Shown in pieces: positions 45,423-59,822 of a stretch of 64,000 bases of DNA. The notes under the pieces are model-generated. The model did not search any database, was not told the DNA's origin, and saw only the letters and a list, made by a program, of their open reading frames with translations. The first letter of the stretch is position 1, and the number at the start of each line of letters is the position of its first letter. The stretch is from Geothrix sp. 21YS21S-4 (lineage in GTDB: Bacteria; Acidobacteriota; Holophagae; Holophagales; Holophagaceae), in the NCBI RefSeq assembly GCF_030845995.1, contig NZ_CP132719.1:2728001-2792000 (forward strand), given 5' to 3'. Made by a program: the position numbers and the translations under genes.

Positions 45423-45535
45423 CGCACTCCCATCTCCGCCCATCCGAGGGCCCATGACTGGAGTGTGGGACCTTCGGATGGACAGCGGAGGCGGGATTTC
45501 CCAATCACTTCTCCGGCCTTCCAGAAGCTTTGCCC

Positions 45536-45925
45536 ACCTGAGGTCACCCAGATCACCGCGCTGTCGGTAGTCCCACCCGACACGGAAGCGGCGAACGTCC
45601 AAACCTCGCCGGGTTTCAATACAGCGGTATTCGGGCTAACGATCACGCCCGAGATGACCGCCTTCACCGTCACCTGCGTGCTGCTCGTCGTGGTCTGATC
45701 CGCCAGGCTCGCGGCCGTCACCGTGAACGTTCCCGCCATGGTCGCGGTGAACACGCCGTTCGCGTCGATGCTCCCCCCGTCGCTCACCGACCACTTCACC
45801 CCCAGCTCCGCCACTCCGCTCACCGTCGAAGTGAACTGCAACGTGGCCCCCGCATTCACCGATGCATTGGCCGGCGAAGGCGTGCTCACTCCGATTGGGT
45901 TGACATTGACCGTCGCCGAACCCGC
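45536..45925 (-). pseudogene. Remnant of an Rhs tip cassette (cassette E)
   Basis: 130 codons match Ig-like repeats 6(end), 7 and most of 8 of the full tip-carrier gene at 51879 (VNPIGVSTPSPANASVNAG ... VKAVISGVIVSPNTAVLKPG), then the similarity stops and the frame runs into unrelated sequence before the CheB-CheR gene. No start, Rhs end or tip remains. It marks the downstream border of the Rhs island and shows a past cassette. Confidence 0.85.
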
Positions 45926-45926
45926 C

Positions 45927-46199
45927 TTAATGGAGCGATTTAGCTCTAAATTTATTAATAAGCAAGTGAAGGATCCCCACAACGCCTAGATTGAATCCAA
46001 ACGGAATAACAGTAAGCCATATGAAGTCAGTAGGGAACACTACTCGCCACGGGATGTAGCTCCAAGGAAGTCCGAGGACGAATATCAATTTATCGAAGCT
46101 CCCATGCCCTCCCCCAAATCCTCCTTGCCCAAAATAGATAACCATTGCACCTGCAAAAAGCACACAACAGGCGATGTAAGCAAATTTGATCATGCGCAT
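45927..46199 (-). CDS. Small membrane protein, putative immunity protein D
   Basis: 90 residues with about three hydrophobic helices (KFAYIACCVLFAGAMVIYF; LIFVLGLPWSYIPW; FIWLTVIPFGFNLGVVGILH). GAAGAGG lies about 7 nt before the ATG. It starts 30 bp after the stop of cassette D, the normal place of an Rhs immunity gene, and its last codons abut the remnant E. AT-rich. A membrane-located protector would suit a lipid-targeting toxin; this is inference, no family recognised. Confidence 0.6.
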   Translation of the reverse strand: MRMIKFAYIACCVLFAGAMVIYFGQGGFGGGHGSFDKLIFVLGLPWSYIPWRVVFPTDFIWLTVIPFGFNLGVVGILHLLINKFRAKSLH

Positions 46200-46229
46200 A
46201 AGGGATCCTCTTCCAATCAATCTAATGGG

Positions 46230-47789
46230 CTAATCGTTCTTTTTCTTTTTCTGATTTTCCTCTGCCTGCTTTTTTCGTTTAGCTTCTGCAGCACCTATCA
46301 CTCTGTAAATCTGATTCGCGATCTTGAGCTTGTCCTCTGCCGTTTTGGCTCGATTGAACTGACCAACAAGCCCTTTGAGCTGATCCCAAGTCACTGCACC
46401 GCCCTTACCACCCCCAATAATCCCCAAGGCTTCACCGAGCTTCTTAAAGGTACCTTCAGCCATTCGATCTGCCTTTGCTGGGTTAGTAGCAGTTTTGTCT
46501 GGAGTGGTACCATCCGACAGATGGCCGTATTTGGCACCATACCCCTCATGAGAGAAACTGTCTTGGTAGGCATGTAGAAAATCTCCCAAGCTTCCCTCCG
46601 TTTTCTCATTACGAAATGACTGCTCAAGCTCTTCACGCCGCTCTGTGGTAGTGAAATGCCAATCTGCGCGAATCGTTTCTCCGCCCCAAACTGTCTTTGG
46701 ATCCCTCGTACCTTCATCTACTGCTTGATTAGCCCGCCCAATTGCCTCGGCGCGTTGTTGTGAGAATCCTGCGGCCCGGGCCAGTACAGTAGTTAGAACC
46801 AAATGAACATCCATTTGGTACATCCCATTCATGTCGATATTCAAAATCGGGTTGTTAGACACGTAGGAATAAATATTCCACTTCTGCGTGAACTCAAAAT
46901 GCTGATCCAATCCCGGGTCGGGACTCAGGAACCTGCCATACCAAGGTGCGTAGAACCTCGCCTGCATATAGATGAGCCCGCTCGGATCCGTCTGCTCGTG
47001 GTTGGTGAAACCCTTCCCGAACTTCGCCGCGCTAGTCGCATCTGTCAAAGACTCGCCGAATGGCAGGAATTTCTGCTCGGATTCTACCACTCCGCTTCCA
47101 TTGACAATGAATCGTGGACTCCCGAGATGATCGGTCAGGGTGTAGTGAGCGCCCTGGGCATCCACCTCCGCGATCTCCCGCGTGCCCACGTACACCACAT
47201 CCCGCGTCCACCTCACCACCCAGCCTTTTACTCGAATGGAGGCTAGCCCATTCTTGGCTGAGTCCTGGAGGCTGGTGGCGGTGATCGTGTAGTTTCCTGA
47301 TTCCGCGGGCGCCGTGAACGTGCCATCCGCGGCGATGCTTCCGCCGGAGGCTGTCCACTTCACCCCGCTGTCCGTGATCCCAAGACCCGACACCGACGCC
47401 GCGAACTTCAGAACTTCCCCGGGTTTCAATACCGCCGTATTCGGCGTCACGGTCACACTCGATATCACAGCCTTCACCGTCACCTGCGTGCTGCTGGTCT
47501 TGGTCTGATCCGCTACGCTCGCGGCCGTCACGATGAACGTTCCCGCCATGGTCGCGGTGAACACCCCGTTCGCGTCGATGCTCCCCCCGCCGCTCACCGA
47601 CCACTTCACCCCCGACTCCGCCGCCCCGCTCACCGTCGAAGTGAACCGCAACGTATCCCCCGCATTCACGGATGCATTGGCCGGCGATGGCGTGCTCACT
47701 CCGATTGGGCTGACATTGACCGTCGCGGAACCCGCCTTGCTCCCGTCCTGCGTACTGGTCGCAGTTACCGTGTAGATTCCTTCCACCAA
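46230..47789 (-). CDS. Displaced Rhs tip cassette D: Ig-like repeats, Rhs end, toxin tip
   Basis: 519 codons. Residues 1-188 repeat the end of Ig-like repeat 6, repeat 7 and repeat 8 of the full gene at 51879; 189-323 are the Rhs end (HLGSPRF, YMQARFYAPWYGRFLSPDPG); 324-519 form a distinct tip. No signal peptide or ribosome site: the first Met is simply the first in the frame, so it is probably silent or fed by recombination. The tip has VLTTVLARAAGFS, DWHF and LGDFLHAYQDSFSHEG, resembling DUF6765 or zinc-dependent phospholipase C-like metal enzymes, and ends in a Lys-rich tail. Toxicity is inferred. Confidence 0.75.
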   Translation of the reverse strand: MVEGIYTVTATSTQDGSKAGSATVNVSPIGVSTPSPANASVNAGDTLRFTSTVSGAAESGVKWSVSGGGSIDANGVFTATMAGTFIVTAASVADQTKTSSTQVTVKAVISSVTVTPNTAVLKPGEVLKFAASVSGLGITDSGVKWTASGGSIAADGTFTAPAESGNYTITATSLQDSAKNGLASIRVKGWVVRWTRDVVYVGTREIAEVDAQGAHYTLTDHLGSPRFIVNGSGVVESEQKFLPFGESLTDATSAAKFGKGFTNHEQTDPSGLIYMQARFYAPWYGRFLSPDPGLDQHFEFTQKWNIYSYVSNNPILNIDMNGMYQMDVHLVLTTVLARAAGFSQQRAEAIGRANQAVDEGTRDPKTVWGGETIRADWHFTTTERREELEQSFRNEKTEGSLGDFLHAYQDSFSHEGYGAKYGHLSDGTTPDKTATNPAKADRMAEGTFKKLGEALGIIGGGKGGAVTWDQLKGLVGQFNRAKTAEDKLKIANQIYRVIGAAEAKRKKQAEENQKKKKND

Positions 47790-47851: not shown

Positions 47852-48202
47852 TCAGTAGCGAGAGATCAAAGCTGCCCATATTGATCCAGAAATGATCGGT
47901 GGGGAAAAATGCAATATATTCATATATTTTGGCAATATGGGCCGAATCCAGATGGAGATAAGTCCTTTTACTACAACAACCGCTCCCAAATAGAGAATAA
48001 AGGACCTTTCATTTTTGAATAAGAGTCCGCCAATCAACAAAATCGCAAGCCACCCCAGCGTATCAATCAAAATAATAGCGAAAAACTTCCCCCATTTTAG
48101 ATGTTGTGGGCTTGCTCGGCATTGCTTTATGAACAAAAAATACATCACAAACAAAGCAAGCCCGTATAATTGAAGCAAAATAAATAGGGTCTCGCTGTTC
48201 AT
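47852..48202 (-). CDS. Membrane protein, putative immunity protein C
   Basis: 116 residues with three hydrophobic helices (LFILLQLYGLALFVMYFLFI; FFAIILIDTLGWLAILLIGG; FILYLGAVVVVKGLISIWI). Its ATG overlaps the stop of tip C (ATGA), so it is coupled to it. Very AT-rich against the surrounding Rhs DNA. No known family; immunity role inferred from position. Confidence 0.6.
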   Translation of the reverse strand: MNSETLFILLQLYGLALFVMYFLFIKQCRASPQHLKWGKFFAIILIDTLGWLAILLIGGLLFKNERSFILYLGAVVVVKGLISIWIRPILPKYMNILHFSPPIISGSIWAALISRY

Positions 48203-48528
48203 TGCTTTTCCTTTTTGACATCAACGATGGTTAATCCGACTTTGAGCCCTGCAAAGATCTTTACTGTAGCTAATGTGAATCCTCCCTGGTCTCGACTCAC
48301 AACCTTTGCTTCTGCCCCGACACTAACCTGTCCACCAATTTCACCACTCAACAAGATGACTTTATAGTCCCCCACGCTCGAGATCACCGCCTTCACCATC
48401 ACCTGCGTGCTGCCGGTCTTCGTTTGATCCGCCACGCTCGCGGCCGTCACCGTGAACGTTCCCGCCATGGTCGCGGCGAACAGCCTGTTCGCGTCGATGC
48501 TTCCCCCGCCGCTCACCGACCACTTCAT
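48199..48528 (-). pseudogene. Rhs cassette C remnant: Ig-like repeat fused to a short tip
   Basis: 109 codons: about 50 match repeat 7 and the first residues of repeat 8 (VKAVISSV), then the frame passes directly into a 57-residue AT-rich tail (GEIGGQVSVGAEAKVVSRDQ) unlike the other tips. The Rhs end is missing, so a deletion or recombination joined the stalk to the end of a tip. Still coupled to a putative immunity gene. Probably inactive as toxin. Confidence 0.65.
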
Positions 48529-48636: not shown

Positions 48637-48837
48637 TTATACAAACTCAATTCCGACCACCACACCATCTACGTTTAGATCAAGCGCAATCTCAACACCT
48701 GATGCCGTAGGGAAGACCTCCGTTCGGTCCACAACATTCTGTGTATCTGAAAATGTGAGATAGAGGGATCCCTCCACATTGCCTGCCGCGCGATCTCGGT
48801 TTGCAAGTTTCAATAGATCATTAATATTTATCTTCAT
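48637..48837 (-). CDS. DUF2283-family small protein, putative immunity/antitoxin B
   Basis: 66 residues with the DUF2283 pattern: LYLTFSDTQNVVDRTEVF and the closing EIALDLNVDGVVVGIEF. DUF2283 proteins are known partners of DUF4258 proteins in toxin-antitoxin pairs, and here the gene starts one base after a DUF4258 gene, with AGGAAA upstream. It is therefore the likely neutraliser of tip B. Confidence 0.78.
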   Translation of the reverse strand: MKININDLLKLANRDRAAGNVEGSLYLTFSDTQNVVDRTEVFPTASGVEIALDLNVDGVVVGIEFV

Positions 48838-48838
48838 C

Positions 48839-49366
48839 TTATTTCCTCACGAATCTTTCGGTTCCGTCTGCCAATTTGACTGCATCGTTGAATTTTGACC
48901 TGACCATGGTGGTTACAACATTCCCACCGGCTTGCTTACTTGTTGCGACTTGTAGAACCTTACCATTCGCTGTTTGCACCACATGCGTAAAGGTATTGTT
49001 CAGCTTATCGAAATAGGTGGTCCCCTTCTCAACCGCCGTAGTTACTGCCTCCTGAGAAACACCTCTTTCAGCCATTCTCTCAAGAGCATGAGCACTAAAG
49101 CTAAGGGGTGATTGTGGATTCTCCACTTGTTGGGCGACAGCCTGAACTTCCTGCTGGACCACTGGAGCAGCTTGCGACCCCTTTGAGAACAGGTCTTTGG
49201 CTCCCTGCCAGGCGGCTGCCCCAGTTGAAGTCAACCATCCGAGGGCAGCACGCCCACCTCCCGCTATGGCTGCACCCAACGGTGATGTCGCCACCCCTCC
49301 AGTAACAAGGGCTGCTGTAGCCATTCCCCCAGCCACGGTGCGCTGCTGCTGCTCCTGAGCAACCAT
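48839..49366 (-). CDS. Rhs tip B with DUF4258 putative RNase domain, cut from its core by an IS
   Basis: 175 codons from the first Met; the frame stays open upstream (TQSEIPAARAERM) to the IS200-type element. Residues 1-85 are a Gly/Ala-rich linker typical of Rhs tips. Residues 85-175 form a DUF4258 domain: FSAHALERMAERGVSQEAV, then GTTYFDKLNNTFTHVV and VLQVATSK. DUF4258 is regarded as an RNase-type (BECR-like) toxin. The Rhs core that once preceded it ends at 50047 on the other side of the insertion, so the tip can no longer be delivered; internal translation would act as a plain toxin-antitoxin unit with the next gene. Confidence 0.72.
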   Translation of the reverse strand: MVAQEQQQRTVAGGMATAALVTGGVATSPLGAAIAGGGRAALGWLTSTGAAAWQGAKDLFSKGSQAAPVVQQEVQAVAQQVENPQSPLSFSAHALERMAERGVSQEAVTTAVEKGTTYFDKLNNTFTHVVQTANGKVLQVATSKQAGGNVVTTMVRSKFNDAVKLADGTERFVRK

Positions 49367-49404: not shown

Positions 49405-50046
49405 ATATCCCCCGGCAGAGCCGGGGGCTTTATCAAGTGAGCCGCTCAAAGCGGCTAAGAGGGGTCGCTAACGCGGCCCCATTTCATCGGTGCCACCTCA
49501 TGGTGGCCACCCCTACCAAGGCAACATCTGCTCCAAGCGCTGGTCCTCCCTTTCTTGTCGACGGATGTATTCCCGCACTGTTGCTTCGTCGCGCCCCACG
49601 GTCGATACGAAATATCCTCGGGCCCAGAAATGCTGCCCAACAAAGTTCCGCTTCCTCTCTCCGTAGACTCGAGCCAGGTGAATGGCGCTCTTCCCCTTGA
49701 TGAATCCGATCACCTGCGATACCGAATACTTCGGTGGAATTGAAATCAGCATATGGACATGGTCACCCATCAGGTGCCCCTCAATGATTCGGCTTTCCTT
49801 CTGCTCTGCCAGCTTCTTCAGGACTTCTCCAAGGTGCGGCCTCAACTTCTCGTAGATCGTCTTCCTCCGACACTTCGGCACAAAGACCACGTGGTACTTA
49901 CACTCCCATCTGGAGTGGCTTAGACTTTCTTCTGAGTCCATCTCAGTTCTCCTCATGTGTGCTTGGCGGCTCACATGAAGATTTCTGCGGTGGACTCCTG
50001 TATATGTCAAACATCTACTGCCTCCCCGGCACAGCCGGGGGCTTTC
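49405..50046 (-). mobile_element. IS200/IS605-family insertion sequence
   Basis: About 640 bp containing one Y1 transposase and bounded by two near-identical hairpins in the same orientation: 49409-49427 (CCCCCGGC/GCCGGGGG) and 50024-50041 (CCCCGGC/GCCGGGG), each next to CTTT. No inverted terminal repeats or target duplication, as expected for this family. A further hairpin AGCCGCT/AGCGGCT lies at 49439-49455. It interrupts Rhs cassette B just after the Rhs end. Exact ends are uncertain by a few bases. Confidence 0.85.
49513..49941 (-). CDS. tnpA: IS200/IS605-type Y1 transposase TnpA
   Basis: 142 residues, the normal TnpA length. HUH motif in HLMGDHVHMLISIPP, catalytic Tyr in FWARGYFVSTVGRDEATVRE. 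Single-strand transposition with hairpin ends. ATG at 49941 has GAGGAG 7 nt upstream. Appears intact, so the element may still move; no tnpB is present. Confidence 0.93.
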   Translation of the reverse strand: MDSEESLSHSRWECKYHVVFVPKCRRKTIYEKLRPHLGEVLKKLAEQKESRIIEGHLMGDHVHMLISIPPKYSVSQVIGFIKGKSAIHLARVYGERKRNFVGQHFWARGYFVSTVGRDEATVREYIRRQEREDQRLEQMLPW

Positions 50047-51228
50047 CTATGAGTTGGTAAGGCTAAGAACACGCATCTGAGGCATATCAGCGATGGGATA
50101 GTCTTCCATCCCATTAGGGTCGATGTGCGTTACAGAGTTATTACGCACATACGAGTAAATATTCCAGCTCTGCGTCTCTTCAAAGTGCTGATCCCGCGCC
50201 GGGTCGGGACTCAGGAACCTGCCATACCAAGGCGCGTAGAATCTCGCCTGCATATAGATGAGCCCGCTTAGATCCGTTTGCTCATGGTTCGTGAAACCCT
50301 TGCCGAACTTTGCCGCGCTAATAGCATCTGTCAAAGATTCACCGAAGGGCAGGAATTTCTGCTCGGATTCTACCTGACCTTGTCCATTCACGATAAATCG
50401 GGGGCTCCCCAAGTGATCCGTCAGCGTGTAATGGGCGCCCTGGGCATCCACCTCCGCGATCTCCCGCGGGCCCACGTACACCACGTCTCGCGTCCACCTC
50501 ACCACCCAGCCTTTTACTCGAATGGAGGCTAGCCCACTCTTGGCTGAGTCCTGGAGGCTGGTGGCGGTGATCGTGTAGTTTCCTGATTCCGCCGGCGCCG
50601 TGAACGTGCCATCCGCGGCGATGCTTCCGCCGGAGGCGGTCCACTTCACCCCGCTATCCGTAATCCCAAGACCCGACACCGACGCCGCGAACTTCAGAAC
50701 TTCCCCGGGTTTCAATACCGCCGTATTCGGCGTCACGGTCACGCTCGATATCACAGCCTTCACCGTCACCTGCGTGCTGCTGGTCTTGGTCTGATCTGCC
50801 CGGCTCGCGGCCGTCACGGTGAACGTTCCCGCCATGGTCGCGGTGAACACCCCGTTCGCGTCGATGCTTCCCCCGCCGCTCACCGACCACTTCACCCCCA
50901 ACTCCGCCGCCCCGCTCACCGTCGAAGTGAACCGCAACGTATCCCCCGCATTCACCGATGCATTGGCCGGCGAAGGCGTGCTCACTCCGATTGGGCTGAC
51001 ATTAACGGTCGCGGAGCCGGTCTTGCTCCCATCCTGTGTACTGGTCGCAGTTACCGTGTAGAGTCCTTCCACCAAAGGGGCAATGTAGATTCCGCTCCCA
51101 TTGATGCTTCCTCCGCTGGCGCTCCAGCTCACCGCCCCGCTGGGAGCGCCCACACCTGAGACCGTCGCCGCAAACGTCGTCGATTCCCCCGCCTTCAGGC
51201 TGATGGTCGACGGGCTCAGCCTTACCTC
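50047..51228 (-). pseudogene. Displaced Rhs cassette B core, interrupted by the IS
   Basis: From about 51228 the sequence follows Ig-like repeats 6, 7 and 8 of the full gene, then the Rhs end up to YVRNNSVTHIDPNGM, and stops inside the IS edge after MRVLSLTNS. The first Met (51153) is internal to repeat 6 with no ribosome site or signal peptide. Roughly nine of ten bases match the full gene in the compared Rhs-end part. Its tip is the DUF4258 protein beyond the IS. Confidence 0.8.
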
Positions 51229-51273: not shown

Positions 51274-51882
51274 TTATTGCGGCATCTTGATGCTAATAGA
51301 GTCTTCACATCCATCAGAAGAATGCGATTCATCTAAGGGCTCTCTCTCATCAAAACGGGGGTCCTTTTCGACCATTTTCTCCAACTCCTGGACGCACCGT
51401 ATGAGTCGATCTACTTGTTTTGTTGTGAGCGATTTTTTCTCAAACTCGGTTCTTTCCCCAAATTTATCTGAGATTCGATGTGCTAGCCCCTTCTCTATGA
51501 AAAGTAATTTGATACGATCCGAGTCTGAAATATCCTTGGTCCCTTTAGTATATATAAATATGACATCAGTTATTACCTTCGACCAATGCCCTGTAGAGAC
51601 CCAGCTATCCCCGTGGAAGGATAGAGGTCGTCCCTTCACCCGAGCAGTATCCACACAGGCAAGGCGAGCAAGAGTTTGTAATGCTTCTCTGTGTGTGATG
51701 TGCCCTTTTCTCCATGAAATATAGACACAATCAGATACGTTTTCTATTTTATCTATTTTTATCTTACTGAAATCCAATTTAATAGTCGCAGAATTTATCT
51801 CTAAGAGAAGAGGTGGGGCTAGGGAAGGTGGTTTAGGAATAGGCTGAATCATTGCAGCAACCATCAAGAATGAGTGAATCAT
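51274..51882 (-). CDS. Putative immunity protein A
   Basis: 202 residues, no family recognised. A short hydrophobic N-terminus (MIHSFLMVAAMIQPIP) could be a weak signal peptide, then an alpha/beta sequence with DSWVSTGHWSKVITDVIFIY. Its ATG overlaps the stop of the tip-A carrier (ATGA), so it is translated with it. AT-rich against the GC-rich stalk and core, suggesting transfer with the tip. Immunity role inferred from position. Confidence 0.65.
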   Translation of the reverse strand: MIHSFLMVAAMIQPIPKPPSLAPPLLLEINSATIKLDFSKIKIDKIENVSDCVYISWRKGHITHREALQTLARLACVDTARVKGRPLSFHGDSWVSTGHWSKVITDVIFIYTKGTKDISDSDRIKLLFIEKGLAHRISDKFGERTEFEKKSLTTKQVDRLIRCVQELEKMVEKDPRFDEREPLDESHSSDGCEDSISIKMPQ

Positions 51883-54800
51883 TTTCTCTCCTCCTTCTCC
51901 TTCGCCTCTTCAGCTTTCTCAATTTCTCGCCTCTCTCGCTCTTGTTGGACGCGAGTATCGAACTCTGATTTGATTGCTTTCGTAGCAGTTACAGCACTCT
52001 TAACCGCATCAGAATTCAGACCGTCTTTTTCACTTTGCTGTTCAGCGTTGTGATGATCCAAGGCATCCCCTAAATGTATCAATCCACCCCATACCTGGAA
52101 TTCTTCATGCTGTGGACTCGTCATATCTTGAACAAGATGGGTCACTTTACCCAGTTCTGCCATGGCACCTTTGTGATCGCCATCGGCTTCCTTTTGAACG
52201 GCTGAAGCCATGGCCTTTTCCTTATATGCCATCGCGGCCTTTTGCGCCTCTTCAGGTGTCTGTTTAGGCGACCTCATCCCATGCTGGTATGAATTCTTCT
52301 GCGACTGGGCTCCATGTAAGAGCGTAGTTCTTCCCCCGTCTACCCTCAAACTTGATCTATTAATCAATTTTAGATCTTTACCAGAAAAGACCTGCCGATT
52401 AATCAACTCATGCGTGGGAGTGGACCATTGTCCCGTAAAATCAACATTAGATACTGGCCCATTACGCACATAGCTATAAATATTCCAACTCTGCGTCTCT
52501 TCAAAGTGCTGATCCCGCGCCGGATCGGGACTCAGGAACCTGCCATACCAAGGAGCGTAAAACCGGGCTTGCATGTAGATGAGCCCGCTGGGATCAGTCT
52601 GCTCGTGGTTGGTAAAGCCTTTGGCGAACTTTGCCGCGCTAGTCGCATCTGTCAAAGACTCGCCGAAGGGCAGGAATTTCTGCTCGGATTCTACCTGACC
52701 TTGTCCATTCACGATGAACCGGGGGCTCCCCAGATGATCGGTCAGGGTGTAGTGAGCACCCTGGGTATCCACCTCCGCGATCTCCCGCGTTCCCACGTAC
52801 ACCACGTCCCGGGTCCACTTTACGACCCATCCCTTCACACGAATGGAGGCGAGCCCACTCTTGGCTGAGTCCTGGAGGCTGGTGGCGATGACCGTATAGT
52901 TTCCCGACTCGGCCGGCGCCGTGAACGTGCCATCCGCAGCGATGCTTCCGCCTGAGGCGGTCCACTTCACGCCGCTATCCGTGATCCCGAGACCCGACAC
53001 CGAAGCTGCGAACTTCAAACTCTCGCCGGGTTTCAACACAGCCGTATTCGGCGTCACATTCACGCTCGAGATCACAGCCTTCACCGTCACCTGCGTGCTG
53101 CTCGTCTTGGTCTGATCCGCTACGCTCGCGGCCGTCACGGTGAACGTTCCCGCCATGGTCGCGGTGAACACCCCGTTCGCGTCGATGCTCCCCCCGCCGC
53201 TCACCGACCACTTCACCCCCGACTCCGCCGCCCCGCTCACCGTCGAAGTGAACCGCAACGTATCCCCCGCATTCACCGATGCATTGGCCGGCGAAGGCGT
53301 GCTCACTCCGATTGGGCTGACATTGACCGTCGCCGAACCTGTCTTGCTGCCGTCCTGAGTGCTCCGGGCCGTGACGGTGTACTGACCTTCCACGAGCGGC
53401 GCCGTATAGGCCCCACTCCCATTGATGCTCCCTCCGCTGACGCTCCAGCTCACCGCCCCGCTGGGACCGCCCACACCCGAGACCGTCGCCGCAAACGTCG
53501 TCGATTCCCCCGCCTTCAGGCTGATGGTCGACGGACTCACACTCACCCCGTTGACCACCGAATTCACCGTCACGTTCGTGCTGGCCTTGGCATTTGAATC
53601 CGCCAGGCTCTCCGCCGTCACCGTGAACGTCCCCGCCGCCGTCGCCGTGAACAGCCCCGAGGCGCTGATGCTTCCGCCTCCGCTCACGGACCACTTCACG
53701 CCCATCTCCACGGCATTGCTCACCACCGCCGCGAATTGCAGGGTGCTTCCCGCATTCACGGAGCCGTTCGTCGGCGTCGGGGTGCTCACGGAGATGGCCC
53801 CCACATTCACCGTGGCCGAACCCGTCTTGCTGCCGTCCTGGACGCTGGTGGCGATGACGCTATAGCTCCCCCCCGCGATGGGTGCCGTGTAGACCCCGCT
53901 GCCGCTGATGCTTCCGCCCGTGGCGTTCCAGGTGACGGCCCCGTTGGGGCCACCCAACCCCGAGACCGTCGCCCCAAACGTCGTCGATTCCCCCGCCTTC
54001 AGGCTGATGGTCGACGGGCTCACGCTCACTCCGCTGACGACTGAATTCACCGTCACGCTCGTGCTGGCGCTCTTGCTGGGATCCACGACGCTGGCCGCCG
54101 TCACCATGAAGGTTCCCGCCGCGGTGGCCGTGAACACGCCGTTCCCATCGATGCTTCCTCCCCCGCTCACGGACCAGTTGATGCCCGCATTCATCGCCCC
54201 GTACACCGTCGCCGCGAACCGGAGGGTGCCCCCCGCGTTCACGGCGCCGTTCGTGGGCGTCGGGGTGCTCACCGAAATGGGTCCCACGGTCACCGTGGCG
54301 GAACCCGCCTTGCTCCCGTTCTGGACGCTGGTGGCCGTCACCGTGTAGCTGCCCGCCGCGATCGGCGCCGTGTAGGCTCCGCTCCCGCTGATGCTCCCCC
54401 CATTGGCGCTCCAGCTCACGCTCTGGCTGGGACCTCCCACCCCCGAGACGGAGGCCGCGAACCCCGTGGATTCCCCGGCCCTCAGGGCGATCGTGGAGGG
54501 ACTGACGCTCACGCCCGTCACCACCGAATTCACGGTCACGGTGGTGCTGGCCACCTTGCTGGCATCCGCGGCGGACGTGGCCGTGACGGTGAACGTGCCC
54601 GCCGTGGTCGCGGTGAACAGGCCGCTCCCGCTGATGCTTCCGCCTCCGCTCACCCACCAGTTCACGCCCGTGTTCACGGCGCCGCTCACGCTGGCCGAGA
54701 ACTGGACGCTGCTTCCCGCGTTCACGGACGGCCCCTGGGGGCTGATCGATGAGATTGAGGCGGGCGTGACGGTGATGGTCCGGGTCGCCGTCGCCGTGCC

Positions 54801-55181
54801 CGTCTTGTTCTGGTAGGTCAGGCACTCCCCGTCCACGTTCCAGGTTTTGCACATCTGGTAGCTGTAGGCCACCGTCAGCGTCACCGTGTAGGTTCCCGGC
54901 GCCGAGAACGTGTGGGTCGTCGACGCCGCGGAACTCGTCCAGCCATCGGTGCAGGACCACCCGTAGCTGTTGACCGCGTAGTTCAGCTTCCCCCCCGCTC
55001 CGCTGGTCGCCGAAAATCCCACCGTCTGGCCCATCCCCGCCGTGATCGAACTCGCCGGCGACGCGATGGTCGCTTCCACGGGATCCGCGGACAGCAGCCC
55101 GCCCGCCAGAACCAGCAATCCCAGGAGCGCCTTCCGAAACGCCCGTCCCTTCATGAGCCCATTTCCCATTTCGGTTCCCAT
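51879..55181 (-). CDS. Rhs tip carrier A: signal peptide, PKD, eight Ig-like repeats, Rhs end, toxin tip
   Basis: 1100 residues. Signal (RKALLGLLVLAGGLLSADPVEA); PKD-like domain 40-140; eight Ig-like (BIG2-type) repeats of about 80 residues, 141-783, in two alternating forms; Rhs hyperconserved end 784-917 (HYTLTDHLGSPRF, IYMQARFYAPWYGRFLSPDP); tip 918-1100. The tip has HELINRQVF and HLVQDMTSPQHEEF, a His-rich metal pattern like zinc-dependent phospholipase C/nuclease P1 folds, then a charged helix. Starts 3 bp after the Rhs-repeat gene, with GGAG before the ATG. The Rhs end is normally part of the large Rhs protein; here it is moved to a separate secreted stalk. Toxicity is inferred. Confidence 0.8.
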   Translation of the reverse strand: MGTEMGNGLMKGRAFRKALLGLLVLAGGLLSADPVEATIASPASSITAGMGQTVGFSATSGAGGKLNYAVNSYGWSCTDGWTSSAASTTHTFSAPGTYTVTLTVAYSYQMCKTWNVDGECLTYQNKTGTATATRTITVTPASISSISPQGPSVNAGSSVQFSASVSGAVNTGVNWWVSGGGSISGSGLFTATTAGTFTVTATSAADASKVASTTVTVNSVVTGVSVSPSTIALRAGESTGFAASVSGVGGPSQSVSWSANGGSISGSGAYTAPIAAGSYTVTATSVQNGSKAGSATVTVGPISVSTPTPTNGAVNAGGTLRFAATVYGAMNAGINWSVSGGGSIDGNGVFTATAAGTFMVTAASVVDPSKSASTSVTVNSVVSGVSVSPSTISLKAGESTTFGATVSGLGGPNGAVTWNATGGSISGSGVYTAPIAGGSYSVIATSVQDGSKTGSATVNVGAISVSTPTPTNGSVNAGSTLQFAAVVSNAVEMGVKWSVSGGGSISASGLFTATAAGTFTVTAESLADSNAKASTNVTVNSVVNGVSVSPSTISLKAGESTTFAATVSGVGGPSGAVSWSVSGGSINGSGAYTAPLVEGQYTVTARSTQDGSKTGSATVNVSPIGVSTPSPANASVNAGDTLRFTSTVSGAAESGVKWSVSGGGSIDANGVFTATMAGTFTVTAASVADQTKTSSTQVTVKAVISSVNVTPNTAVLKPGESLKFAASVSGLGITDSGVKWTASGGSIAADGTFTAPAESGNYTVIATSLQDSAKSGLASIRVKGWVVKWTRDVVYVGTREIAEVDTQGAHYTLTDHLGSPRFIVNGQGQVESEQKFLPFGESLTDATSAAKFAKGFTNHEQTDPSGLIYMQARFYAPWYGRFLSPDPARDQHFEETQSWNIYSYVRNGPVSNVDFTGQWSTPTHELINRQVFSGKDLKLINRSSLRVDGGRTTLLHGAQSQKNSYQHGMRSPKQTPEEAQKAAMAYKEKAMASAVQKEADGDHKGAMAELGKVTHLVQDMTSPQHEEFQVWGGLIHLGDALDHHNAEQQSEKDGLNSDAVKSAVTATKAIKSEFDTRVQQERERREIEKAEEAKEKEERK
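52833..54761 (-). repeat. Tandem Ig-like repeat array, four A/B pairs
   Basis: Eight units of about 240 bp, alternating type A (VSTPTPTNGSVNAG ... VSGGGSI) and type B (VSVSPSTISLKAGEST ... GGSISGSG), so the true period is about 480 bp. The last two or three units recur in cassettes B, C, D and E, where they form the 5' border of each. Confidence 0.88.
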
Positions 55182-55184
55182 GGC

Positions 55185-58100
55185 CTACTCCAGCCCCAGC
55201 TCGTACTCGGACACCAGCTGCCGAGCCTCGTTGTAGATGCGGTACTGCTTTCGAAGAAGGTTGGAGGGGGCCACGGTGCCCTGATACACCTCCACGACCG
55301 TCCGCAGGCCCTGATCGTCGTAGCGGTAGACTTCCACCACGTTCCGCGCGGCGTCCCCCATGCTTACGACCCGACCCAGCCCGTCATAGGCCATGGTCAG
55401 GAGGCTGCCGATGGCATCGGAGGTGCTGCCCGGAATGCGCTGGATGCGAAGCAGGTTCCCCTGGGCGTCATATCCGCTCACGCCCACCCCCGTGGACACG
55501 CCGCCGAGGGACGCGGGAATCCGGTTGGTCGCCCCCAGGGCGGCTTTCTCAGAGGCATTCAGGTCGTAGGAAAGGGCGCGCTGATCCGGCAAGGGGAGCA
55601 GCTGGGGCGAGGCCGGCGGCTCGGAACCCGGACTCCAATTCTGGACCTTCCAGGAATGCAGGCTCGTCCGGTTGCCGTAGGCGTCATAGCCGTAGGTCTG
55701 CATCAGGCCCAGGGCCGGGGAGGGTCCGGTGGGATGGTCCTTCACGAAGGCGCTCTGAAGCCGCCCCAGCTCGTCGGAGCGATAGAAATCCGTTCCGTCC
55801 GATTTCAGGCGGCCCGCCCCGTCATAGGCATAGGACCAGCTCGCCACCGCTCCAGCGGAAGCGAAATGCTGCAGCGAGGCCAGCCGGGTCTGGTCCAACC
55901 CATATCCCAGGAAGGTACTGGGTCCGCCCACCACCGACAGGCCACGAAGGCCCCAATGGATGGAATCGTACGCCAGGGTCGTCGCCCCCAGCCCAGGGAA
56001 GGAGGTGCCGTTGGGAAGTCCCTTGGCCCGGTCGTACTGGAACGTCTGTGTATTTCCATCCCCATAGGTACGGGAAGCGAGGAAGCCGTAATCGGGGTCG
56101 TACCCAAGCCTCTGGCTGAAAACAGGCAAATCGGGAACCGTTACCTTGAGAAGGGAGAGACGCCCATTCACGCCGGCGTACTCCAGTTCCCGCGTTCCTC
56201 CTCCAGCGCTCGCGAACGTGAGCTTTCCGCGGCTGGGCGTGCCGTCATTGGGACCATGGTCGTAGGTATAAGCCAGGCTCACGGCACCGGCCGAAGAGGT
56301 CAGGGCGCGGAGGTTCCCCACCGAATCGTATTGGGCTGAAACCTGCTTGGGGTCTCCGGATTCGAAACCGTAGGTGGTTTTCCAGGGCTTGCCGGAAACA
56401 TCGAAATCCTCGTACCGGGTGGAGCCGCTTTCCGGTTGATCAAGCTGGGTCAGCCGACCGAGGGCGTCATAGGACCATCCTCTGGCTCCCTGTTCGATGG
56501 TCTGCGACTCGCTATAGGACTGGACCTGGGCGATGCGGCCCGCGGCGTCGTACCCATAGGTGGTCAGCTGGCCCTTGGGGTCGACCACCTGGACCAGGCG
56601 TCCCACGGCGTCATAGCGATAGGTGGTCTGAAGGTCGGTCTGAGCGGTTCCCACCTCCGCGGATTTCAGGGTCTGGAGCACCTGAAGGCCCTGGCTCCAC
56701 CCTCCGTACTGGCGGGTGGTCGTCACGCCGTTGGGATCGACCGTCCGCACCACGCGTCCGCGCCAATCATAATCCGTTCTCGCCCCGACATAGGCTGCCG
56801 CCTGCGTCTGGTAGGTGGGAGGTTCCCCACAGACGGGGCAAGCCCCGGTCTCCCCCGGATCGGGAACCGAAGGGTCCGTGGTGGGAATTTGGGGTGCGGG
56901 ATGGTTATGGCCGCAGGTGCGAACGAGCACGGTGGCTTCGGAGACAAGGTTGGCCTTGGCCGTATCCGCCACGCTTCCATGGTCGGACCAGACCGTCGTT
57001 CCCGTGACGCGCCCCTTCTGGTCCCGGGCATAAAGGCGATAGGAGTCGCTCCCGCTTCCTTCCTTGCGCTTCTCCATGGCCAATTCGCCCCAGGCGTTGT
57101 AATGGAACTCGGAGGTCTGGACGCCCCGTGTGGCGACCACCTGGGTGGGGGAAGGATGGTCGTAGTTCGTGGCCAGTTCGGTGCCCACGCGGTGGGAGAC
57201 GAGCCGGCCGGAAGCATCCCAGCCGTAGTCCGAACGCACGCCGTCCGGACTGGTCTGGGAGGTGACTCGACCCAATCCGTCCCGGGTCTCCTGCATGTCC
57301 CACTGGACGCCCGCGGGCTTGATCGAGGAGAGAAAGCCGAGGGAATCGCTGTACGTATAGGAGGCTCCCACCCCGCCGGACAGGCGCATGGCCCCGGAAG
57401 GATCCTTCACGATCGCGCTTTGCAGCAACGGCTGATCGGCAGGCACGTGGGTGCTCTCCCCCACGTACGTGAATTCGGTCGCCAGCTGGGCTCCCCCCTC
57501 CGTGCCCGTCGTCACGCTCTTGGGCAGCGCGGTCCCGAAAACGAAGGTCCGCTTCACCGGGGGGGCGGAATACGACGCAGCTCCCACCACCCAGGGCGTC
57601 GAATCGACGATGGACGTGTGCTCATCCGTGATCTGGATGCCGCTCCACATGCTCGCATCGAAGGCCCCCACCAGATCCGTGGTGGTCTGGTGTCGGAGGT
57701 CGGAATAGGTCACGGGATTCTGGGCGCCCAAAGCCAGGCTGTAGAAATCCGCCGCCAGATCGGGTTTCTGAGGCGCGCGGTACCGTTCCTCCACCTTCTT
57801 CGTCCACAGGAAAGCGGAGGCGTCCCAGTTGCGGCTCTCCTGAAGGTGAAGGGTTCCCGATTCCTGGTCCCAGCTTCGGGTCCGGGTGGGATACACCTCG
57901 CTGCCGATGGAGGCGAAACTGCCCGCGGGATTCCCGAGCCTCCGGGTATCCCAGCGGTCATAGATGGTGAGGACGGGCGCCGAACTCTGGGCGGCCGAAA
58001 GCTCCATTTCGGATGCAGAGGGGGTGTCAGGATATTCGCGGGTCTGGGTGATCTTGTGGGTCAGATGGGCGAGCGTCTGCATGGAGGCTTCGCCAAGGGG

Positions 58101-59822
58101 TGTAGGTTCCACAAAGTAATTCACCACGGTCGACACGGGGGAGGGCATTCCTCCGGACGCAGTCACGGTAACGGCATCATAGAATTTCGTGCTCACCCAT
58201 CCGTAATCGTTGGGAACGGGAACGGGCGTCACGCGGGCATGAGTGGTGCTCCTGAAAAGCCCCGTGGCACGGTCCTCTTCGCCGATGGTGGTGACGCCCC
58301 AAACATGGGCATTCCAGCGACTGAGATCGGGAACGTAACCCGCCCACGAATTGGGCGAGGAGTTGGGACGATAGGGATAGTGGTTCCAACCCAGCGAGAT
58401 GAACTTGCCCGTGGAGAACTCGACGGTACTGAGAATGGGCCAGATTCCGGGGATGTTCCCGTCGAAGCGGGCCGCTTGATATTGGAATTGGACGGATTCG
58501 GAACTGGAAAGGTCGACGAGCTTGACCGGAAAACACGAGGTGGAGTACAGACCCCACTCCGGAAGATGGGAAATCATGGGCCAAGTGGCCGAGATAGGAT
58601 AAAGAGCGGAGGTCGTCTCGGTCACCAGGTCCGCTGAAAAGTAGGTCAGGGAATAGGAAGGGGCCGGAGAGGCGCCTCCATAGGTGATCTGGACAGTGTG
58701 GCCCTTGGTGGCAGTGAGCCCTCCCACCGCTGGCTGAGCTGAGGAAAGCGCCACCTGACCTGTGAACTTGAAGGCCACAAAGGCTCCGGTGGGCTGTCCG
58801 GAGCGGAACCAGCGGGCCGTATAGTCCAATCCGTTGGGAACCGTATTCTGAGTGGCAATACCGATGTAACTGATGCCGTAGTCGAATTCGATGACATCCG
58901 AATATTTGTTTATGATCCGAGAAAGCACATACTGGCTGCTCCTGAGCCACTGCTTCCATTTACCGTCGGGGAGGTTTGCCACACGAGGGAGGGGAATGAA
59001 GCGGGAGGCCTCGACACCCCCCGACATGGCGTATTCGTAGGCGACGTCTCCCTGGATGACCAGGACACAGGTCGGGAAGGTCCAGAGTTTGCTCTCCATG
59101 CCGGGATCCGGAATGTTCAATTCCGGCGCCACTCCGGCTTTCCGGAGGCCGATGATCAGTTCATCGTTGGACCCCACTTGAATGAAGTCGGCGCGGGGCT
59201 GGCTGGCGATGGGGCTTGTGAAAAAGGGCAACGAAGCCACTTCCCACCCCTGGGCGCCACCCCTGCCGAACTGCGCCAGAAGGGCAGCGGGATTGCTTGC
59301 GCCGGCGGGAACGACGCCTGCTCCCAGCACGCCGCCCCTCCCGGTGGGGAGCGTGTAGGTACTCAAAGCCGACCCATTTCGGGTATCAGGGGCAAGGACC
59401 TCAAGCGTCCCCGGAGAAAAACTGCTCTGGCCCCCGGAGGCGTAGCCCGTCGTCAGCGTTTCCTGCTGAATTTGGAGCATCGCCTGCACTTCCGAAAACC
59501 CTGATGGCCCCATCAGCAGATAGGGGGGTTCTCCCAACAGGGCGTTCGGATCGATGAATTCGGTTCGACTCCACCCCAACGCGGAAGAACGGATGTACAC
59601 GGCGGGAGCGAACTGCGCGCCCCTGGCGCCGATGCCCGGTCCCAGCGGAAGCCGCATGTTCACCGCGCCGGTGGCATCCTCCACTTCAAGCGCCCCATGG
59701 ATGGTGCGAGGGCCAATGGAAGGGTCGTATTTCACCTGCTCAAAGTGCGTCTGGTAGGTCTGACCGGCCAGAAAGACGGACGACAAGCTCAGGAGAGCTC
59801 GGAGCAGAAAGAGTCTCGACAT
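55185..59822 (-). CDS. Large secreted Rhs-repeat protein without the Rhs end or tip
   Basis: 1545 residues. Signal peptide (SRLFLLRALLSLSSVFLAG); an N-terminal region (to about 850) with no clear domain; then YD/Rhs repeats (for example YDAVGRLVQVVDPKGQLTTY, YDAAGRIAQVQSY) to residue 1520. It ends at RIYNEARQLVSEYELGLE, exactly where ordinary Rhs proteins continue into VVYVG..EIAEV..DHLGSPR; that part is in the next gene. About residues 964-1003 carry TCGHNH ... CPVCGEPP, a zinc-ribbon-like insert. ATG at 59822 begins a good signal peptide; an ATG at 59846 is possible. Forms the shell (inferred). Confidence 0.88.
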   Translation of the reverse strand: MSRLFLLRALLSLSSVFLAGQTYQTHFEQVKYDPSIGPRTIHGALEVEDATGAVNMRLPLGPGIGARGAQFAPAVYIRSSALGWSRTEFIDPNALLGEPPYLLMGPSGFSEVQAMLQIQQETLTTGYASGGQSSFSPGTLEVLAPDTRNGSALSTYTLPTGRGGVLGAGVVPAGASNPAALLAQFGRGGAQGWEVASLPFFTSPIASQPRADFIQVGSNDELIIGLRKAGVAPELNIPDPGMESKLWTFPTCVLVIQGDVAYEYAMSGGVEASRFIPLPRVANLPDGKWKQWLRSSQYVLSRIINKYSDVIEFDYGISYIGIATQNTVPNGLDYTARWFRSGQPTGAFVAFKFTGQVALSSAQPAVGGLTATKGHTVQITYGGASPAPSYSLTYFSADLVTETTSALYPISATWPMISHLPEWGLYSTSCFPVKLVDLSSSESVQFQYQAARFDGNIPGIWPILSTVEFSTGKFISLGWNHYPYRPNSSPNSWAGYVPDLSRWNAHVWGVTTIGEEDRATGLFRSTTHARVTPVPVPNDYGWVSTKFYDAVTVTASGGMPSPVSTVVNYFVEPTPLGEASMQTLAHLTHKITQTREYPDTPSASEMELSAAQSSAPVLTIYDRWDTRRLGNPAGSFASIGSEVYPTRTRSWDQESGTLHLQESRNWDASAFLWTKKVEERYRAPQKPDLAADFYSLALGAQNPVTYSDLRHQTTTDLVGAFDASMWSGIQITDEHTSIVDSTPWVVGAASYSAPPVKRTFVFGTALPKSVTTGTEGGAQLATEFTYVGESTHVPADQPLLQSAIVKDPSGAMRLSGGVGASYTYSDSLGFLSSIKPAGVQWDMQETRDGLGRVTSQTSPDGVRSDYGWDASGRLVSHRVGTELATNYDHPSPTQVVATRGVQTSEFHYNAWGELAMEKRKEGSGSDSYRLYARDQKGRVTGTTVWSDHGSVADTAKANLVSEATVLVRTCGHNHPAPQIPTTDPSVPDPGETGACPVCGEPPTYQTQAAAYVGARTDYDWRGRVVRTVDPNGVTTTRQYGGWSQGLQVLQTLKSAEVGTAQTDLQTTYRYDAVGRLVQVVDPKGQLTTYGYDAAGRIAQVQSYSESQTIEQGARGWSYDALGRLTQLDQPESGSTRYEDFDVSGKPWKTTYGFESGDPKQVSAQYDSVGNLRALTSSAGAVSLAYTYDHGPNDGTPSRGKLTFASAGGGTRELEYAGVNGRLSLLKVTVPDLPVFSQRLGYDPDYGFLASRTYGDGNTQTFQYDRAKGLPNGTSFPGLGATTLAYDSIHWGLRGLSVVGGPSTFLGYGLDQTRLASLQHFASAGAVASWSYAYDGAGRLKSDGTDFYRSDELGRLQSAFVKDHPTGPSPALGLMQTYGYDAYGNRTSLHSWKVQNWSPGSEPPASPQLLPLPDQRALSYDLNASEKAALGATNRIPASLGGVSTGVGVSGYDAQGNLLRIQRIPGSTSDAIGSLLTMAYDGLGRVVSMGDAARNVVEVYRYDDQGLRTVVEVYQGTVAPSNLLRKQYRIYNEARQLVSEYELGLE

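What the first reader, a model, noticed from the sequence alone, without database searches (positions are those of the whole stretch)
51879..59822. Split Rhs: shell and tip are separate secreted proteins joined by an Ig-repeat stalk
The 1545-aa Rhs-repeat protein ends at ARQLVSEYELGLE, and the segment that normally follows in one chain (VVYVG..EIAEV, DHLGSPRF, RFLSPDP) is in the next gene, behind its own signal peptide, a PKD domain and eight Ig-like repeats. Seen directly: both proteins, both signal peptides, 3-bp spacing. Known: Rhs proteins form a closed shell in which the conserved end is the plug before the toxin. Inference: the shell may be completed in trans, with the Ig stalk anchoring or displaying the tip. 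I do not know a described system with this layout.
Basis: partly seen in the sequence, partly recalled or inferred. Interest (0 to 1): 0.85.

Follow-up and report, generated by a model that had tools for sequence, protein, structure and literature searches.

The report
Two-protein Rhs toxin shell, Ig-stalked
In Geothrix and related soil and sediment bacteria, a toxin-carrying Rhs protein that is normally one long chain is made as two separately exported proteins, a hollow shell and a toxin-bearing cap on an immunoglobulin-like stalk, which most likely fit together after export and let the bacterium exchange toxins without touching the shell gene.

Summary
The window gene at 59822-55185(-) has Rhs repeats but no Rhs-associated core domain. 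That domain lies in the next gene, 55181-51879(-), behind a signal peptide, a PKD domain and eight Ig domains. I found the same cut, at the same residue, in seven further genomes, eight loci in all, from Geothrix and at least one other genus of the family. In uncut relatives the cut falls exactly where a linker of about 8 residues joins shell to tip. In two relatives, one in this same genome, a PKD-Ig stalk sits at that point inside one unbroken chain. Trees of the shell and of the tip separately sort cut from uncut forms. An AlphaFold2 model of a cut pair, tethered by reading through its TAG, superposes shell and tip together on solved Rhs shells about as well as an uncut control. The best reading is a two-chain Rhs shell closed in trans by a stalked, toxin-bearing cap. 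Downstream orphan cassettes carry stalk, tip and other toxins. Two-chain Rhs shells are known (TcB-TcC); I found no description of this cut site, second signal peptide and stalk. Physical assembly and export across the outer membrane are untested.

The parts
55185..59822 (-). Rhs shell ('core') gene: signal peptide plus Rhs/YD repeats, 1545 aa, ends 5 aa after YNEARQLVSEY, no Rhs-associated core domain
55188..55191 (-). GGAG ribosome-binding-site-like motif at the end of the shell gene, 6 nt before the carrier ATG; GGAG-TAG kept in all five Geothrix loci
   Evidence: read from sequence
51879..55181 (-). Carrier gene, 1100 aa: signal peptide, PKD, eight Ig domains, Rhs tip, toxin
55086..55181 (-). 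Carrier signal peptide (about residues 1-32, ..LLSA/DPVEA; no lipobox)
   Evidence: by eye; ADPxEATI conserved in relatives
54768..55085 (-). PKD domain (Pfam core 50-105)
52827..54767 (-). Stalk of eight Ig-like domains (483-bp double repeat, four copies)
52431..52826 (-). Rhs tip: Rhs-associated core domain incl. DHLGSPRF, RFLSPDP and the Asp residues D886 and D914 expected of the C-terminal autoprotease
   Evidence: motif as in PMC8765631
51882..52430 (-). Variable C-terminal toxin candidate (183 aa), weak match to zinc-dependent phospholipase C (E 0.009, below cut-off)
51274..51882 (-). Candidate immunity gene (202 aa), ATGA overlap with the carrier stop; no family match
50047..51226 (-). 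Orphan cassette 1: 1.09 kb of stalk and tip, 89% identical to the carrier DNA, without start region; toxin end interrupted
49513..50010 (-). IS200-like Y1 transposase between the tip of orphan cassette 1 and its probable toxin
48637..49366 (-). Probable toxin end (DUF4258, 49366-48839) and small following gene (48837-48637) of orphan cassette 1
47852..48528 (-). Remnant cassette: 155 bp of stalk (92%) joined to another C-terminal end, plus a small membrane-protein-like gene
46230..47789 (-). Orphan cassette 2: stalk, tip and a different toxin end (DUF6765-like)
45927..46220 (-). Small membrane-protein-like gene after orphan cassette 2, candidate immunity
45534..45928 (-). Remnant stalk fragment (88%) ending the array

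Best explanation
This is a secreted polymorphic Rhs toxin whose shell is built from two chains. Shown by sequence: the two genes, two signal peptides, close gene spacing, a conserved cut site, co-inheritance and swappable toxin cassettes. Inferred: both chains leave the cytoplasm by Sec and fold together. The tip of the carrier takes the place it has in uncut Rhs proteins, as the last strands and the autoprotease plug that close the shell, so that the toxin end lies inside. The cut falls in a surface linker, so the PKD-Ig stalk projects outward from that point with a free N-terminus and may bind a target, the producer's surface or its matrix. The autoprotease then frees the toxin inside the shell. 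Splitting puts everything that varies (stalk, tip, toxin) on the second gene, so new toxins arrive by recombination with downstream orphan cassettes that share stalk and tip DNA, leaving the shell gene untouched.
For: (1) Same cut in eight loci: window, G. rubra, Geothrix sp. GS30, G. limicola, G. terrae, UBA692, G079 and G080. Shell proteins there are only 32-48% identical over 640 aa except one closer pair, so the split is old. (2) The cut removes nothing but the short linker of uncut relatives. (3) Two relatives, one in this genome (L010), carry PKD-Ig at the same point in one chain. (4) Shell tree and tip tree both separate split from fused forms, supports 92/93 and 98/97. In the eight split pairs shell and tip distances correlate, r 0.57, P 0.002. 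(5) Gaps of 2-3 bp, or overlap, in seven of eight loci (52 bp in G079), with GGAG at the end of the shell gene in Geothrix. (6) The tethered AF2 model of the G. terrae pair superposes from residue 1 to 1160 on Rhs chain 8qja at 2.8 A over 544 residues (Z 21.6). The uncut control gives 523 residues at 2.8 A (Z 23.4). In both, the first half of the tip is confident and the second half is not. (7) Tip matches the plug end of TccC2, TccC3 and YenC2. (8) Toxin ends differ among loci, and orphan cassettes share 0.9-1.1 kb with the carrier at 89%.
Against: No physical complex was shown. The model was tethered by read-through and its alignment contained 11 uncut relatives, so it shows that the tip fits, not that free chains meet; only range end points were returned, and the autoprotease half has pLDDT 24-40. 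The correlation of distances also reflects species history and rests on eight pairs. Signal peptides were judged by eye. How large proteins cross the outer membrane of a Gram-negative cell is unknown. Bacterial killing and immunity were not tested.
Confidence: 0.68

Rival explanations
1. The carrier works alone: an Ig-stalked surface toxin whose tip has become a free autoprotease domain, while the shell protein is a separate, perhaps empty, secreted protein.
For: The carrier has its own signal peptide and a complete domain set. In G079 a second intact carrier stands beside only a truncated shell copy.
Against: Gene order and close spacing are kept in all eight loci. Shell and tip are inherited together. 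The tip is the most conserved part (64-85% identity against 32-48% for most shells), and the model places it on the shell. G079 still has one intact shell that could serve both carriers.
Confidence: 0.17
2. Tip and shell do pair, but between neighbouring molecules: the stalk links shells into chains or sheets, a domain-swapped surface assembly.
For: In the one-chain form (L010) a rod of PKD and several Ig domains separates shell and tip, which could favour pairing with a neighbour.
Against: In the split form nothing ties the stalk N-terminus to any shell, so chain formation would need another contact. Not tested.
Confidence: 0.08
3. The TAG is read through at some rate, giving a fused chain as well as two short ones.
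For: In four loci the stop and start are in one frame, 3 bp apart; the stop is TAG in all five Geothrix loci.
Against: G. rubra is out of frame and the G079 and G080 layouts differ. A fused product would hold an internal signal peptide. TAG is explained by common descent and as the neighbour of the GGAG site.
Confidence: 0.04
4. A broken gene or assembly error.
For: In-frame stop in a large gene.
Against: A signal peptide follows the stop, and eight loci of several genomes, one of them this closed genome, agree.
Confidence: 0.01

Closest known systems
TcB-TcC subcomplex of ABC (Tc) toxins, e.g. YenB with YenC proteins
   Same: A hollow Rhs shell formed by two gene products, the second ending in the Rhs-associated core domain and a variable toxin; one TcB can serve several TcC (PMC11067744)
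   Different: There the second chain brings several hundred residues of Rhs repeats; here it brings only the tip of about 130 aa. Here each chain has a Sec-type signal, the second has a PKD-Ig stalk, and no SpvB or propeller domain was found
Single-chain Rhs effectors (RhsA, Tse5, Tse15; T6SS)
   Same: Rhs shell closed by a C-terminal aspartyl autoprotease domain with the PxxxxDPxG motif, toxin inside (PMC8765631); fold match of the models
   Different: One chain with PAAR or VgrG delivery; here two chains with signal peptides and no PAAR
Bacterial teneurin-like proteins and Sec-secreted YD-repeat toxins such as WapA
   Same: Exported Rhs shell with adhesion domains and polymorphic toxin end (PMC13018210)
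   Different: One chain, adhesion domains at the N-terminus; here the stalk sits between shell and tip and the chain is cut there
Orphan rhs/CDI toxin cassettes
   Same: Promoterless downstream modules that share sequence with the main gene up to the toxin and carry other toxin and candidate immunity genes
   Different: Shared sequence includes 0.5-0.8 kb of Ig stalk, and the recipient is a stand-alone carrier gene

Membership tests
Polymorphic Rhs toxin | Rhs/YD repeats | tested here: met
   PF05593 E 4e-36 and TIGR01643 in the shell protein
Polymorphic Rhs toxin | Rhs-associated core domain in the same chain as the repeats | tested here: not met
   TIGR03696 lies in the next gene; same in eight loci. 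The locus as a whole has both parts
Polymorphic Rhs toxin | Variable toxin end after a conserved tip, with orphan cassettes | tested here: met
Polymorphic Rhs toxin | Autoprotease Asp pair and PxxxxDPxG site | tested here: met
   D886 and D914 invariant in three split carriers; in the window the site reads PVSNVDFTG, with F for P, so cleavage there is less certain
Polymorphic Rhs toxin | Toxic end neutralised by a cognate immunity protein | not testable with these tools
   Candidate immunity gene 51882-51274 only by position
TcB-TcC (ABC toxin) | TcB with SpvB and beta-propeller domains | tested here: not met
   No such Pfam or NCBIfam match in the shell protein
TcB-TcC (ABC toxin) | TcA partner | not tested
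   TcA was not searched for in the genome
TcB-TcC (ABC toxin) | Shell assembled from two chains | tested here: inconclusive
   Tethered model agrees; no free two-chain model or experiment
T6SS Rhs effector | PAAR or VgrG domain, no signal peptide | tested here: not met
   No PAAR or VgrG match; N-terminal signal peptides by eye

The most novel reading that the evidence does not exclude
Rhs shells can be cut into separately exported parts that self-assemble outside the inner membrane, with Ig stalks at the joints, and this arose more than once: the eight-locus family here, a three-gene Rhs in the same genome (L076) and an Rhs cut after an Ig region in G044 (L090). One shell may then be loaded with several carriers, as the two carriers in G079 suggest.
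Probability: 0.3. Interest if true: 0.8.

Novelty: new variant of a known kind. Interest (0 to 1): 0.64.

Why it matters
It gives a natural split of the Rhs shell at its closing joint, so the open question of how an Rhs shell is closed around an unfolded toxin can be tested by adding the cap to the shell. It also shows how a toxin reservoir can be exchanged without touching the delivery shell, and suggests one way in which Rhs toxins with signal peptides get adhesive stalks.

Tried and rejected
Assembly or sequencing error: rejected by eight loci and a closed genome. Read-through of TAG as the rule: rejected, because G. rubra is out of frame and the g23 layouts differ. Loss of shell residues at the cut: none, the cores end at the linker. 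Mirror-tree of the N-terminal 600 aa of the shell with the tip: weak (r 0.29, P 0.09). G016 (L051) looked like a split carrier by length but holds its own YD repeats. Other mid-length tip frames that I fetched from class relatives (G042, G046, G050) were mostly ordinary single chains. Literature searches for a split Rhs found none, within an open-access library only. A free two-chain structure prediction was not possible; the tethered read-through construct was used instead. Three carrier rows that misaligned onto the shell were left out of the modelled alignment. Plain Foldseek gave high rmsd over the whole 1195-residue model because it tries to align through the stalk; VIA-align was used for the comparison.

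Full report
What is there. The window lies in a closed 3.08-Mb genome of the genus Geothrix, as judged by its nearest named relatives (the genome itself is unnamed). On the minus strand, 59822-55185 encodes a 1545-aa protein with a signal peptide and Rhs repeats, ending ARQLVSEYELGLE-TAG. After GCC comes the ATG of an 1100-aa protein, 55181-51879. Profile searches give RHS_repeat and YD repeats for the first protein only. For the second they give PKD, Big_2/I-set Ig domains and Rhs_assc_core at residues 838-918. Sequence comparison with solved structures matches the first to the shell of T6SS Rhs proteins and the tip of the second to the plug end of TccC2, TccC3, YenC2 and teneurins. The stalk has eight Ig domains in four 161-residue pairs.

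It is conserved. Searching relatives and reading the neighbouring frames gave eight loci with the same order: shell gene without tip, then a carrier with signal peptide, PKD or Ig stalk, tip and toxin. They are the window, Geothrix rubra, Geothrix sp. GS30, G. limicola, G. terrae, UBA692, and two genomes of another genus of the family (G079, G080). UBA692 is a Holophagaceae genome whose genus I could not settle. All eight shell proteins end 3 to 7 residues after the motif YN(D/E)xRQ(L/M)xSx(Y/W). In uncut relatives the same motif is followed, about 8 residues later, by the W.RDI.YLG strand that opens the tip. The cut therefore takes nothing away but the linker. Two uncut proteins, one of them in this very genome (L010, 2383 aa) and one in a metagenome bin (L059, 2435 aa), carry a PKD-Ig or Ig stalk inserted at that point in one chain. 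Three states exist: direct, stalk inserted, and stalk inserted and cut.

Spacing. The gap is 3 bp in the window, GS30, limicola and terrae, 2 bp in rubra, an overlap or near contact in UBA692 and G080 (depending on the start codon chosen), and 52 bp in G079. In the five Geothrix loci the shell ends GAG-TAG, and a GGAG lies 5-6 nt before the carrier start, which suggests translational coupling (inference). The in-frame relation is not kept, so read-through is not required.

Shell and tip are inherited together. A tree of the last 640 residues of the shell separates the 8 split from 12 uncut forms with support 92/93. A tree of the 134-residue tip separates the same 8 from 13 uncut forms with 98/97. 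Within the split pairs, shell and tip distances correlate (r 0.57, P 0.002), while the N-terminal 600 residues of the shell do so weakly (r 0.29, P 0.09). With eight pairs and shared species history this is support, not proof.

Structure. Free two-chain prediction was not possible. I used the G. terrae pair, whose genes are in one frame, and read TAG as Gln: 600 residues of shell, signal peptide, PKD and Ig stalk, and the tip (1195 residues; 20-row alignment). AlphaFold2 gave mean pLDDT 73 and pTM 0.56. The first half of the tip had pLDDT of about 85, the second half 24-38. VIA-align 2 superposed residues 1 to 1160 on single Rhs chains: 8qja Z 21.6, 2.8 A, 544 residues; YenC2 (4igl) Z 17.3, 3.4 A, 513 residues; TcdB2-TccC3 about Z 16, 600 residues. 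An uncut relative (L061) with the same length of shell and the same rows gave Z 23.4, 2.8 A, 523 residues on 8qja, with the same drop of confidence in the second half of the tip. So in this setting the cut tip fits the shell about as well as an uncut one does. The tether and the 11 uncut rows in the alignment mean that this shows fit, not free assembly; only end points of the aligned ranges are known, and plain Foldseek, which tries to align through the stalk, gave high rmsd.

Toxin exchange. The carrier's last 183 residues match zinc-dependent phospholipase C weakly. Other split carriers end in Peptidase_M91-like, DUF6883, HNH-like (weak) or ParB-like ends, or in nothing recognised. Downstream of the window's candidate immunity gene lie promoterless cassettes that start inside the Ig stalk: 50140-51226 and 46860-47786 share 1.09 and 0.93 kb with the carrier at 89%, and two remnants share 155 and 398 bp. 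One is interrupted by an IS200 transposase. In G079, two carriers with the same stalk and tip lie near one intact shell gene and one truncated shell copy.

Mechanism. Shown: gene layout, conservation, domain content, co-inheritance, exchangeable ends. [quoted passage not shown] Inferred: both chains are exported by Sec, the tip closes the shell in trans, the toxin lies inside, and the stalk points outward from the cut linker.

Compared with the known. Two-chain Rhs shells exist: TcB and TcC form one, and one TcB can serve several TcC (PMC11067744). There the second chain also brings many Rhs repeats. Here it brings the closing tip alone, has its own signal peptide and a PKD-Ig stalk, and no Tc-specific domains were found. 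I found no description of this layout, within an open-access library. I rate it a new variant of a known kind.

Noticed in passing
L076 6412-12339, 12352-15708 and on to L009 16388 (own genome C1 about 572.4-590.4 kb): A second, unrelated Rhs in the same genome is spread over three consecutive genes (1975, 1118 and 2890 aa). The second and third start with signal peptides, the third with a long PKD/Ig-like stalk before its last YD repeats and tip. The middle protein has no relative in 76 other genomes of the family.
   Followed up: partly
L090 4157-9094 and 9091-10989 (G044): Another Rhs cut in two with a 4-bp overlap: gene 1 has YD repeats followed by a run of Ig/BACON-like domains, gene 2 has its own signal peptide, further YD repeats and the tip.
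   Followed up: partly
L097 6603-8690 and 16956-19100 (G079): Two carriers with the same N-terminal stalk and tip but different toxin ends, in inverted orientation; the second lies next to a truncated shell fragment, with transposases around.
   Followed up: partly
window 49513-50010: IS200-like Y1 transposase gene inside an orphan cassette, between tip and a DUF4258 toxin end; hairpin-like CCCCCGGCT(G/C)TGCCGGGG sequences flank it.
   Followed up: no
L010 10736-12646 and 12955-13971: The single-chain stalked paralogue of this genome also has downstream orphan cassettes holding stalk plus tip or tip alone.
   Followed up: no
L092 (G039): At least six tip-plus-toxin frames in about 20 kb in a different family of the class, with almost identical tips and an unrelated-looking N-terminal part but no YD repeats in the same frames.
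   Followed up: no
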